IMG/VR virus record: IMGVR_UViG_3300025039_000002
Coordinates: 1-39,957 of that record
Origin: a virus
Strand: one strand, 5' to 3'
Length of the DNA stretch: 39,957 nucleotides
Below the pieces are notes generated by a model. The model did not search any database and had not been told where the DNA came from. It was given only the letters and a program-made list of their open reading frames with translations. Each line of letters starts with the position of its first letter. Position 1 is the first letter of the stretch. The position numbers were made by a program, and so were the translations under genes. Shown piece by piece: positions 5,616 to 27,940 of the stretch.

Positions 5616-7706
5616 ATGCAGGCGGACCTCACACAGCACGATACCGCTCTCGAAGAGCAGACGACCGACAAGGACGCGCTTGCCGAGGTGCATGAGCGCG
5701 CGATGAAGCGGTTCGATGCGTGCGCCTGGCCGCAGCAGGAACTTCGGGCGCAGAGCCTGGCCGCTCGCCGCTTCGTCTCGATCCCCGGCGCGCAGTGGGA
5801 GGACGAATGGGGCGAGCAATTCGCAAATTCGATCAAGGTCACCGTCGACAAGGTGAGCCGCGGTCTGCGCAAGATCGAGACGGATTACCGCGAGAACCGC
5901 ATCGTCCCCGACTTTCGACCCGATGGCCCGAAAGCGGATCCTGAGACGGCCGAGACGCTGGACGGGATGCACCGGGCTGATGGTTACAGGTTCAAATCGC
6001 AGCAGGCGCGCGACAACGCCGCCTACGAGGCTTTCGCTGGTGGGTTCGGTGCTTACCGCCTGACAAACGAATGGGAAGACGAGGCAGACAAGGACAACGA
6101 CCACCAGCGGATCAATCCTGCCTCCATCATCGTCGACGCGGACCAGTCGGTCTATTTCGACGCCAACGCGCGGCTCTACGACAAGGCCGATGCGCGGTTC
6201 TGTTTTGTCCGCACCCAGATGACGCGCGATGCCTTCGAAGAGGATTACGGCGAGGACGCGATCAGCGAATTTCCCGACGTGGGACGCTGGCGGATGCTCG
6301 ACTGGTTCACCGCCGAGACGCGCGCGATCGCCGAATATTACGAGGTCGAGGAAAACACCGAGACGCTGTATGTGCTGACCTACACGCTGTCGGGCAAGGA
6401 GGAGCGCCGCTGGGCGTCTGACTTCGACGATGGCGAGCTCGAGCAGATGAAGGCGGACGGGTGGAGCGCGAAGAGGCAGCGCCGCAAGCGCCGCCGGGTC
6501 CACAAGTATATCCTCTCCGGTGCCGAGGTGCTCGAGGATTGCGGCGTCATCGCCGGCGACATGATCCCGGTCGTGCCGGTCTACGGCCGCCGCTATTTCG
6601 TCGACAACATGGAGCGCTGGCAGGGCTACGTCCAGGACAAGATGGACGCCCAACGGCTCTACAATTCCAACGTCTCGAAGCTGGCCGAGATGAACAGCCT
6701 CAGCCCACGCGAAATCCCGATCTTCGCGAATGAGCAGATGGACCCGGTGAGCGCGCAAAACTTCGCGCGGCTCAACATCGATCGCCTGCCGTATCTCACC
6801 GTCGAGCCGTTGCGCGATGCCGAGGGCAATGTCGTGCAGGCTGGGCCGCTCGGCTACATCAAGCCGCCGGACCTTCCGCCTGCCATGGCCGCGCTGATCC
6901 AGCTCGCGAACGCCGACTTGCTCGAGGAATCGCAGGACGGTGCCGACACGGTGAAGGCCAACACCAGCGCCGAAGCGATGGACATTGCCGCGACCCGAGT
7001 GGACGCGAAGTCGGGGATCTACCTCGACAACTTCCGCCAGTCGGTGCAGCGCGAGGGCGAAATCTACCTCTCGATGTGCGCCGACGTCTATGTCGAGGCG
7101 GGCCGCGATGTCGAAACCATGACCGAGGACGGCGACGACGGGCAGGCGACCTTGCAGCAGATGCGGACCGATGGCGGCAAGACGATCATCGTCAACGACC
7201 TGATCGGCGGGCGCTACAAGGTCATCGCCAGCGTCACCGAGGCGACCGCGACCCGGCGCGACAAGACGGTCAAGTCGATGCTGCGCACTGCCGAAATCGC
7301 CATCCAGGCGCAGGACATGGAGCTGGCGCAGGCTGCTATCCTCACCGCGGTGCTCAACCAGGACGGCGAGGGGATCGACGACTTCCACGACTGGACGCGC
7401 GCGCGGGCGCTCAAGCTGGGGCTGGTCAAGCCGAACGAGGACGAGCAGGCCGCAATGGCTGAGCAGGCCGAGAACCAGCAGCCCGATCCGATGGCGCAGG
7501 TTGCCGAGGCTCAGGCGGCGGAACTGATGAGCAGCGCGCAGAAGAACGTCGCCGAGGTCAAGGAAACCGAGGCCGATACCGCGCTCAAGATGGCCAAGCG
7601 CGATGAGACGCTGGCCAAGACCATGGAGACGCTGCGCAACATCGGCGCTCAGCAGCGCGAGGCCATGCCGAACCGGCCGGCGCTGATCCCTCCACCGATG
7701 GCGTAA
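5616..7706 (+). CDS. Portal protein (P22-like), 696 aa
   Basis: Forms the dodecameric channel at the capsid vertex through which DNA enters and leaves. The length (about 700 residues) and the features fit the P22 gp1 family: an acidic N-terminal region, a conserved core with SIIVDADQSVYFDANARLYDKADARF, a long C-terminal helical stretch (about 610-690) and a GlnAla-rich coiled coil resembling the barrel region. I placed the start at 5616 (MQADLTQHDT); upstream codons in frame run antisense to conserved sequence of the previous gene and look non-native. No good ribosome binding site precedes it. The adjacent scaffold and P22-like coat genes support the call. Confidence 0.92.
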   Translation: MQADLTQHDTALEEQTTDKDALAEVHERAMKRFDACAWPQQELRAQSLAARRFVSIPGAQWEDEWGEQFANSIKVTVDKVSRGLRKIETDYRENRIVPDFRPDGPKADPETAETLDGMHRADGYRFKSQQARDNAAYEAFAGGFGAYRLTNEWEDEADKDNDHQRINPASIIVDADQSVYFDANARLYDKADARFCFVRTQMTRDAFEEDYGEDAISEFPDVGRWRMLDWFTAETRAIAEYYEVEENTETLYVLTYTLSGKEERRWASDFDDGELEQMKADGWSAKRQRRKRRRVHKYILSGAEVLEDCGVIAGDMIPVVPVYGRRYFVDNMERWQGYVQDKMDAQRLYNSNVSKLAEMNSLSPREIPIFANEQMDPVSAQNFARLNIDRLPYLTVEPLRDAEGNVVQAGPLGYIKPPDLPPAMAALIQLANADLLEESQDGADTVKANTSAEAMDIAATRVDAKSGIYLDNFRQSVQREGEIYLSMCADVYVEAGRDVETMTEDGDDGQATLQQMRTDGGKTIIVNDLIGGRYKVIASVTEATATRRDKTVKSMLRTAEIAIQAQDMELAQAAILTAVLNQDGEGIDDFHDWTRARALKLGLVKPNEDEQAAMAEQAENQQPDPMAQVAEAQAAELMSSAQKNVAEVKETEADTALKMAKRDETLAKTMETLRNIGAQQREAMPNRPALIPPPMA

Positions 7707-26035: not shown

Positions 26036-26492
26036 CGGTAGGCTCCTTGAGGGCGGCGGCGATAACCTGAACGGCGGCGTGATGGCTCATGTGTTCGAGC
26101 GATCCGCGATCTGCGTCGGTCCTGCATTGGACGAGGTGCTTACGGACAAGCCCGAAAGCCGCCTCCAACCGCGCCAACCTGTCAGCCTCGGGTGCTTCGG
26201 TGGCGTCAACGGTGGTGGGCGCATCGGGAGCAAGACTGCTGTGGCCGCATCCATATTCGCGAGCGACTGGTGCTTCGGTGGGGCGCGAGGCGAGGGCGGC
26301 GGAGAGCTTATTCATCTCGTGGCAGATAGCGTTGGCGCTTTCCTCCGAAGCGATGTTGCCGAACCGCGCGAAGTGCCGTTCACCATCCCAGATGAACCAG
26401 CGCGGGCCGACTGTCGAAGTCTGCCCTTCGACATGAAACCGGGGCTTGCGCTCCACCGCCCCCACATCCCCCAAGTTTTCACTTCGATCCAT
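26022..26492 (-). CDS. Phage-type protein of unknown function, 156 aa
   Basis: ATG 26492 with AAGGAG upstream. The N-terminal 60 residues have a small beta domain (PRWFIWDGERHFARFGN followed by EESANAICHEMNKL), a pattern common in phage proteins that accompany recombination genes. A variable linker and a C-terminal helical region (RLARLEAAFGLVRKHLVQC) follow. It is the first gene downstream, in operon order, of the TnpB insertion; its ribosome binding site lies 30 bases from the tnpB start. Confidence 0.75.
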   Translation of the reverse strand: MDRSENLGDVGAVERKPRFHVEGQTSTVGPRWFIWDGERHFARFGNIASEESANAICHEMNKLSAALASRPTEAPVAREYGCGHSSLAPDAPTTVDATEAPEADRLARLEAAFGLVRKHLVQCRTDADRGSLEHMSHHAAVQVIAAALKEPTDATD

Positions 26493-26538
26493 GGCTCGGC
26501 TCCTTGTTGGCGGTTGAATTTCGTGGTAAAAAGCTGTT

Positions 26539-27720
26539 GTGTTTCGGACCCAAAAATACCGGCTCTATCCCACTGATCAGCAGGCCCAAGTTCTTGCGAA
26601 CTTCGCCGGAACTACGCGGTTCGTTTACAATCTCGCCCTCGAACAGCGCCGCGACTTTTGGCGTCAGTTTCTTCGCGAGACCGGCAGGCATTTGAATTAT
26701 GTCACGCAGGGTCGACAGGTCACTCAACTTCGCCAAGAGTGCGATTGGATAAGAGAGACGCCGGCTGACTTTCTGCACTGCGCCTTGCGAGACCTGGATA
26801 AGGCGTTCGCCAAATTCTTTCGCGGCGGCGGGTTCCCCAAATTCCGCAAGGCGGGCGTGACGGACAGCTTCGAGATAAAGGCGCGGTACGTTCAAGTTCG
26901 CGCGCTGAACACGAAGTGGTCGCAGATACTCATACCCAAGCTGGGGTGGGTGAAGTTCCGAGATTCGCGCCGCAGGGATGGGGACCTTCGCTCTGCTCGT
27001 GTGATCAGTGACGATGGCAGATGGTTCGTCTGCATTGGCGTTCGAAACGAACACGTTGCTCCGGCCTCGTGCCTCCCCGCTGTAGGCATTGATCGAGGGG
27101 TCACGCTGGCCGTTGCTCAGTCCGATGGTCGGGCAATGAGCATCCCGGCAGAACTCAACCTTCTCGCGATCAAGGCAGGGAAGGCCAAACGAGTCCTTTC
27201 CAGAAGAAAGCGAGGCTCCCGCAGATACGAAGCTCAGCGCAAGGTCGCTGGTGCTATCATCGCTAAGGCGGCCCGCATTCGCTGGGACTGGCAGCAAAAA
27301 CTGACCACCGACATAGTCCGCCAATACGGAACGGTTGTGCTGGAGGATCTCAAAACCCGCAACATGACGGCAAGAGGGCGTGAAGCCGGAGCCGCTCAAA
27401 AGCGCGGACTCAATCGCGCGATCCTGAACATCGGTTGGTACAGCATCGAGCTGATGCTCACCTACAAGCTCGAAGAACGCGGCGGGACGCTCATCAAGAT
27501 CAATCCCGCCTTTACCTCGCAGACCTGCTCGGCCTGTGGCACAATCGACAAGGGGAGCCGCGAGAGCCAAGCGCGCTTCGCTTGCCTGCATTGCGACCAC
27601 GAAATGAACGCCGACCACAACGCTGCGATCAACATACTCCGCCAAGGCCTGGCGGGCGTGGACGGTGGCGGTTACGCCCCGGATGAAGCGCGAACTACTC
27701 AACCTCGCCTCGCGGCGTAG
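26539..27720 (+). CDS. tnpB: TnpB RNA-guided nuclease (IS200/IS605-type OrfB), 393 aa
   Basis: GTG start (FRTQKYRLYPTDQQ, the usual TnpB beginning). The RuvC-like site is intact: D185 in GIDRGV, E269 in VVLEDL, and D359 in NADHNAA. A zinc ribbon C330/C333...C349/C352 lies between. The length is normal. TnpB proteins cut DNA guided by an RNA made from the element's own 3' end. There is no TnpA transposase nearby. The gene runs against the surrounding leftward operon, so it is an insertion. Intact catalytic residues argue against a TldR-type nuclease-dead repressor. Confidence 0.93.
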   Translation: MFRTQKYRLYPTDQQAQVLANFAGTTRFVYNLALEQRRDFWRQFLRETGRHLNYVTQGRQVTQLRQECDWIRETPADFLHCALRDLDKAFAKFFRGGGFPKFRKAGVTDSFEIKARYVQVRALNTKWSQILIPKLGWVKFRDSRRRDGDLRSARVISDDGRWFVCIGVRNEHVAPASCLPAVGIDRGVTLAVAQSDGRAMSIPAELNLLAIKAGKAKRVLSRRKRGSRRYEAQRKVAGAIIAKAARIRWDWQQKLTTDIVRQYGTVVLEDLKTRNMTARGREAGAAQKRGLNRAILNIGWYSIELMLTYKLEERGGTLIKINPAFTSQTCSACGTIDKGSRESQARFACLHCDHEMNADHNAAINILRQGLAGVDGGGYAPDEARTTQPRLAA

Positions 27721-27727
27721 GGGAGGT
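27600..27727 (+). ncRNA. Possible omegaRNA (guide RNA scaffold) at the 3' end of tnpB
   Basis: In this family the guide RNA scaffold overlaps the 3' end of tnpB and ends just beyond its stop. Here a hairpin spans the stop: CGCC (27706-27709) with GGCG (27714-27717) around TCGC, enclosed by ACCTC (27702-27706) pairing with GAGGT (27723-27727). The guide would be the bases after about 27728. Boundaries are a guess; only the hairpin is seen. Confidence 0.3.
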
Positions 27728-27940
27728 CGACGCATCCCCGGCACTGTGGCGGAGGACTGAGATAGCTGCGGGCAGATGCTTGAGCGCGTCGAAGGCTTCG
27801 GGCGCGTGGGTCATGGCCTGAAAGAACTTCCCGTTGGCATAGGCGTATTCTTCGCAGTCCTGTCCGGTTTCGAGGTCTTCGATTAGTGGCAGGGCCTTCG
27901 CCAATTCATCCGCCAGCGAGTTTGTGTCAGTCTGTTCCAT
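27695..27940 (-). CDS. Small phage-type protein, 81 aa, C-terminus altered by the tnpB insertion
   Basis: ATG 27940 (MEQTDTNSLADELAKALPLI). It overlaps the ASCH gene by 14 bases. A helical acidic protein; EDLETGQDCEEYAYANGKFF and APEAFDALKHLP are clear coding stretches. Its last eight codons and stop are antisense to the end of tnpB, so the original C-terminus was probably replaced when the element inserted. Function unknown. Confidence 0.72.
   Translation of the reverse strand: MEQTDTNSLADELAKALPLIEDLETGQDCEEYAYANGKFFQAMTHAPEAFDALKHLPAAISVLRHSAGDASTSPTPRGEVE

What the first reader, a model, noticed from the sequence alone, without database searches (positions are those of the whole stretch)
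26539..27727. Catalytically intact TnpB carried inside a phage early operon, with no TnpA
D185, E269, D359 and all four zinc cysteines are present, so this should be an active RNA-guided nuclease, not a nuclease-dead repressor. It is antisense to the operon that it interrupts and has a hairpin at its stop where the guide RNA scaffold would end. A guide taken from the flanking phage DNA would cut relatives lacking the insertion, favouring this phage in mixed infections or spreading the element by homing.
Basis: partly seen in the sequence, partly recalled or inferred. Interest (0 to 1): 0.75.

Follow-up and report, generated by a model that had tools for sequence, protein, structure and literature searches.

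The report
Transposase-free TnpB nuclease in a phage
A phage carries an intact gene for TnpB, a small RNA-guided DNA-cutting enzyme whose guide would be copied from the phage's own neighbouring DNA; it belongs to a group of phage-borne copies that have mostly lost their transposase, so it probably behaves like a homing nuclease that attacks related phages lacking it, but no matching target for this copy was found.

Summary
A 393-codon tnpB lies antisense in the phage's early (recombination/integrase) operon. It has the D185/E269/D359 triad and four zinc cysteines. The record holds no Y1 or serine transposase. The hairpin alone is no better than chance (z -0.2), but 12 relatives place a real scaffold there. 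The guide RNA scaffold ends at 27730 and the guide starts at 27731, inside a truncated phage gene.

This copy groups, with moderate support, with TnpA-less phage copies. Among close relatives, 2 of 41 viral copies but 22 of 39 cellular copies have an adjacent TnpA. All 43 viral copies keep the triad, so they are not TldR-like repressors. In a sister phage pair, the 23-nt guide of one (L203) matches an unoccupied, motif-flanked site in the other (L204), as cutting of element-free relatives requires.

For the window itself no empty site was found: no match to its guide exceeds 19 nt. Its right end is also the most eroded of the 13 aligned. The homing/interference reading is plausible and supported by analogy, not shown. 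TnpB in phages, TnpB homing and TnpB gene drive on plasmids are already published. The repeated TnpA loss in phage copies is the most interesting part.

The parts
26539..27720 (+). tnpB, 393 aa, GTG start; RuvC triad D185 (27091-27093), E269 (27343-27345), D359 (27613-27615); zinc cysteines C330, C333, C349, C352
   Evidence: GTG position shared with relatives L097, L178, L182
27640..27730 (+). inferred guide-RNA (omega/reRNA) scaffold, overlapping the 3' end of tnpB; upstream hairpin about 27664-27680
   Evidence: conserved C-terminal coding/scaffold motif; not significant by energy alone
27703..27721 (+). terminal right-end hairpin CCTCGCC-TCGC-GGCG(T)AGG, 7 bp with one bulged T
   Evidence: in 13 relatives the hairpin sits at this position (mean contiguous stem 6.46 bp vs 3.31 in shuffles); the window's own is the weakest
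27722..27730 (+). right-end tail GGAGGTCGA; clade consensus GGATGCTGA; inferred element right end
27731..27750 (+). inferred guide CGCATCCCCGGCACTGTGGC, copied from flanking phage DNA
   Evidence: position from right-end alignment; unique in the window from 9 nt upward; no match longer than 19 nt in IMG/VR
27695..27940 (-). phage gene cut by the element: residues 1-70 phage-encoded (27731-27940), last 11 residues and stop supplied by the right end; homologue L087 is about 130 aa
26022..26492 (-). phage gene on the left side, no recognised family; its start codon (CAT on +) is 46 bp from tnpB
26489..26538 (.). unresolved left end; candidate target-adjacent motif CCAT at 26489-26492 (relatives L187, L190, L202, L182 show TCAT at the same place)
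   Evidence: hypothesis, needs an empty site

Best explanation
This is a TnpA-less IS200/IS605-type (IS1341-like) element inserted in a temperate phage of alphaproteobacterial type. TnpB very likely binds an RNA that covers the 3' end of its own gene and ends in about 16-20 nt of flanking phage DNA (27731 onward). That RNP would ignore its own locus, because the element separates target from target-adjacent motif, and would cut related phage genomes that have the same site without the element. Repair from the carrier copies the element, or the cut simply handicaps the competitor. Shown: intact protein, right-end anatomy, no TnpA, the same layout in related phages, and a natural unoccupied target in one sister phage pair. 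Inferred: expression, RNA processing, cutting, and the benefit to phage or element.
For: Family, residues and fold. All 43 viral relatives keep D-E-D and 42 of 43 keep all four cysteines, so the nuclease is maintained in phages. Conserved right-end hairpin plus tail at the same place in 13 copies despite sequence change. Adjacent TnpA in 2 of 41 viral vs 22 of 39 cellular copies, Fisher p = 3e-7, with TnpA-less phage copies interleaved among TnpA-bearing ones in the trees. L203's 23-nt guide lies in L204 directly after CTGAC, the motif of that group, in contigs about 97% identical over 5 kb. RNA origin, TAM dependence and homing model: PMC8612924. TnpB displaces element-free plasmids: PMC11870625. 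A phage homing endonuclease works in phage competition: PMC11620839 (abstract).
Against: No empty site for this copy in viral contigs or in 684 whole-genome searches. Its tail is GGAGGTCGA instead of GGATGCTGA and its hairpin is bulged, the weakest of 13. Folding energy is ordinary. No promoter called for tnpB. Tree placement is only moderately supported, with a long branch (UFBoot 78 for the enclosing group; placement shifted between runs). The Fisher test ignores shared ancestry.
Confidence: 0.55

Rival explanations
1. Inert passenger: a recent or decaying insertion that lost TnpA; TnpB happens to be intact but its RNA no longer works, and it sits in the phage without function.
For: Most deviant right-end tail and weakest hairpin of 13; it truncates a phage gene; no target found; TnpB-only insertion sequences are common.
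Against: The ORF is intact along a long branch, about 50% identical to its nearest relatives, with all catalytic and zinc residues kept; 43 of 43 viral relatives keep the triad.
Confidence: 0.28
2. Still mobile in trans: an IS1341-like element moved by a Y1 TnpA from the host, with TnpB only guarding against loss; the phage is just a vehicle.
For: Close relatives carry TnpA in hosts; right ends are recognisable; related copies sit at many different sites.
Against: Left end is not recognisable as the hairpin-bearing left ends of mobile relatives; the clade's right-end terminus (CTGA) differs from those of TnpA-bearing groups (GTTAA, GTCAG).
Confidence: 0.12
3. Domesticated for another role, for example RNA-guided control or an antisense transcript on the operon it opposes.
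For: It is antisense to the operon; several phage copies are fitted into operons with overlapping starts and stops.
Against: The nuclease triad is intact, unlike TldR repressors, where domestication followed inactivation (PMC13418256); guides differ between copies, and this guide matches only its own flank in the phage.
Confidence: 0.05

Closest known systems
ISDra2 TnpB (IS200/IS605), PDB 8h1j/8exa/8bf8
   Same: Same fold and domain set; top fold and sequence matches among natural TnpBs; RuvC triad and zinc ribbon; RNA from the right end
   Different: ISDra2 keeps TnpA and TAM TTGAT; here no TnpA, TAM unknown, host replicon is a phage
Alphaproteobacterial IS200/IS605 elements, e.g. Methylovirgula pHY1 (L088), Azospirillum (L089)
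   Same: About 50% identical TnpB, same right-end layout
   Different: They carry TnpA, have TCAT before the left end and end in GATGTTAA
TnpA-less phage TnpBs L097, L182, L178, L187, L190, L191, L202, L206, L209, L291, L292, L300
   Same: No adjacent TnpA, right-end hairpin plus CTGA-type tail; several sit antisense upstream of a phage gene
   Different: Other phages and other sites; the window's tail and hairpin deviate most; L097 is chromosomal with a serine recombinase gene just upstream
TldR, phage-encoded nuclease-dead TnpB (PMC13418256)
   Same: TnpB-derived, in prophages
   Different: TldR lost the RuvC triad; here it is intact
Phage homing endonucleases (PMC11620839, PMC10448857)
   Same: Expected to work the same way: cut element-free allele of a competitor
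   Different: RNA-guided, guide renewed at each insertion; different protein family

Membership tests
TnpB (IS200/IS605 OrfB) RNA-guided nuclease | OrfB_IS605 and Cas12f1-like_TNB domains with RuvC D-E-D and zinc ribbon | tested here: met
TnpB (IS200/IS605 OrfB) RNA-guided nuclease | guide RNA scaffold at the 3' end of the gene ending at the element right end | tested here: met
   by comparison with 12 relatives; not by energy alone; tail deviates
TnpB (IS200/IS605 OrfB) RNA-guided nuclease | RNA-guided, TAM-dependent DNA cleavage | not testable with these tools
   needs expression and cleavage assay
Autonomous IS200/IS605 element | Y1 transposase TnpA | tested here: not met
IS607 element | serine recombinase TnpA | tested here: not met
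TldR nuclease-dead repressor | inactivated RuvC triad | tested here: not met
   triad intact
Works like a homing endonuclease gene | element-free allele with intact target exists in relatives | tested here: inconclusive
   not found for the window; found for sister phages L203/L204
IS1341-like TnpB-only element | tnpB without tnpA between recognisable element ends | tested here: inconclusive
   right end recognised; left end not resolved

The most novel reading that the evidence does not exclude
Phages have repeatedly turned TnpB into a transposase-free, RNA-guided homing nuclease. Its guide records the insertion site, so each carrier phage cuts co-infecting relatives that lack the element, and the element spreads by repair or the carrier wins the cell. 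The window copy would be one member.
Probability: 0.35. Interest if true: 0.75.

Novelty: new member of a known kind. Interest (0 to 1): 0.45.

Why it matters
If phage TnpBs act without TnpA, phages own a self-reprogramming counterpart of homing endonucleases, and the L203/L204 pair gives a natural guide-target pair with which to test it. It would extend the plasmid gene-drive result for TnpB to phages and help explain why the nuclease triad is kept in 43 of 43 viral relatives although the transposase is mostly gone.

Tried and rejected
Rfam for a known guide RNA: nothing. Folding energy of the right end alone: no signal. Exact 16-mer of the window guide in IMG/VR: 36 hits, none extending beyond 19 nt, so taken as chance. 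Same for L178's 18-mer: only its own contigs and chance hits. Flank protein in 299 Sphingomonadaceae and the in-frame joined flank protein in 385 alphaproteobacterial genomes: nothing; neither search had a positive control. The left flank protein finds no relative in viral contigs. L182 right flank in genomes hit mainly a short repeated stretch, probably a tRNA attachment site. L300 region in phage records: none.

I considered that the element split one 226-aa gene, because the flanks join in frame. I left it as unproven: the chance expectation is one in three and no intact homologue was found. I considered TCAT as the window's own target-adjacent motif: the window has CCAT, and its nearest TnpA-bearing group uses TGAC, so this stays a hypothesis. 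L185's guide occurs in L184/L186 for 18 nt, but the preceding 4 nt are TCAC/TCCC rather than TCAT and L185's left junction is not clean, so it is not used as evidence.

Full report
What is there. The window is a complete IMG/VR record of 39,957 bases with terminase, primase/helicase, endolysin, repressor, integrase, excisionase-like and RecE-like exonuclease genes, so a temperate phage or prophage. tnpB (26539-27720, +) lies among minus-strand genes between the integrase end and the exonucleases. No Y1 or serine transposase exists in the record.

Where the element ends. TnpB-bearing insertion sequences in alphaproteobacteria end in a GC-rich hairpin and ...GATGTTAA, after which flanks differ. 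In phage copies nearest to the window the same place reads hairpin + GGATGCTGA (variants GGAGGCTGA, GGAAGCTGA, GGGTGCTGA). In 13 copies the hairpin ends directly, or within one base, at this tail. The mean contiguous stem is 6.46 bp against 3.31 in shuffled sequence (highest of 2000 shuffled sets 4.38) and falls when the window is slid. By this alignment the window's right end is 27730 and the guide starts at 27731. The window's tail (GGAGGTCGA) and bulged 7-bp hairpin are the most deviant of the set.

What it interrupts. The minus-strand ORF 27695-27940 is homologous to the first about 63 residues of a 130-aa protein in phage contig L087. In the window it runs into the element at codon 70 and takes its last 11 codons and stop from the right end. 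The guide is therefore a piece of a phage gene. On the left, the start codon of the next minus-strand gene lies 46 bp from tnpB. The left end of the element could not be fixed. In TnpA-bearing relatives the 4 bases before the left end are TCAT (two groups plus the Acetobacteraceae group) or TGAC (another group), with differing flanks outside. Several phage copies close to the window show TCAT, and the window CCAT, at the start codon of the opposing gene, but without an empty site this is only suggestive.

Relatives and loss of TnpA. A genome scan and IMG/VR scans, with a few plasmid and phage records, gave 80 distinct copies at 40% identity or more that were usable for this count. Adjacent TnpA: 2 of 41 viral, 22 of 39 cellular (Fisher p = 3e-7, not corrected for shared ancestry). 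TnpA-less phage copies are scattered among TnpA-bearing ones in the trees, so loss happened several times. The L203/L204 pair shows it at close range: L203 lacks the 487 bp that hold the left end and tnpA in L204. All 43 viral copies keep D-E-D, which separates them from phage TldR repressors (PMC13418256). The window's exact sister is uncertain: it groups with TnpA-less phage copies at UFBoot 78 and moved when the taxon set changed. In 398 Sphingomonadaceae genomes only 3 carried a close relative.

Is there a target? For the window, none was found. Its guide 16-mer occurs in 36 viral stretches but never beyond 19 nt. For a related phage pair, yes. L203's guide GGCTGTATAATTCACACAAGGAG is present in L204 immediately after CTGAC, at the homologous position. 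L204 bears its own element 24 bp further on, which does not destroy the L203 target. By the established rule (RNA from the right end plus about 16 nt of flank, TAM-dependent cut, homing proposed: PMC8612924), L203's TnpB should cut L204's genome.

How it most likely works. TnpB plus its 3' RNA cuts phage genomes with the unoccupied site; self is spared because the element separates motif and target. Either repair copies the element or the competitor is handicapped. TnpB gives plasmids this advantage in experiments (PMC11870625), and a protein-guided homing endonuclease works in phage competition (PMC11620839). Steps shown here: intact enzyme, right-end anatomy, absence of TnpA, maintenance in phages, and one natural unoccupied target in a sister pair. 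Steps inferred: expression, RNA processing, cutting, benefit. The main rival is an inert passenger, given the eroded right end.

Novelty. TnpB-only elements and phage-borne TnpBs are long known and annotated as transposases (499 phage records with matches, 85 covering most of the protein; phrog_506). The window is a new member of a known kind. The less expected part is at clade level: repeated loss of TnpA in phage copies with universal retention of the nuclease and a right-end RNA. I found no paper in the held library that reports this; most subscription papers are not held, so absence there is weak evidence.

Noticed in passing
L088, L101, L089, L106, L109, L110, L189, L192, L194, L195 (left junctions): The motif before the left end, TCAT, is the complement of ATGA. 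In about half of 21 TCAT copies, including all four phage-contig ones tested, it is the start of a plausible opposing gene; in L088 it is the annotated ccoS start overlapping the tnpA stop. The elements may favour start/stop overlaps in operons.
   Followed up: partly
L191:6194, L209:6155, L203, L204, L198, L211, L213 (right ends): Where tnpB runs with the operon, the right end carries a ribosome-binding site and ATG from which the next phage gene appears to start, so the scaffold DNA is also the start of a coding sequence.
   Followed up: no
L097:2293-2973: In Sphingomonas alba the related tnpB is preceded directly by a serine recombinase/resolvase-like gene (judged by eye from its sequence), unusual for this Y1-associated group.
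   Followed up: no
L203:4948-4954 and 6250-6256: Seven bases (GGCTGTA) after the target motif are repeated at both sides of the tnpA-less element, which Y1 transposition would not produce; may reflect a repair event.
   Followed up: partly
L187 TnpB residue aligned to C333: One phage copy has lost a zinc cysteine (C to G) while keeping the RuvC triad.
   Followed up: no
L182:3944-3993: A roughly 46-50 bp stretch next to the integrase is nearly identical in almost all of 299 Sphingomonadaceae genomes, probably a tRNA end used as attachment site.
   Followed up: no
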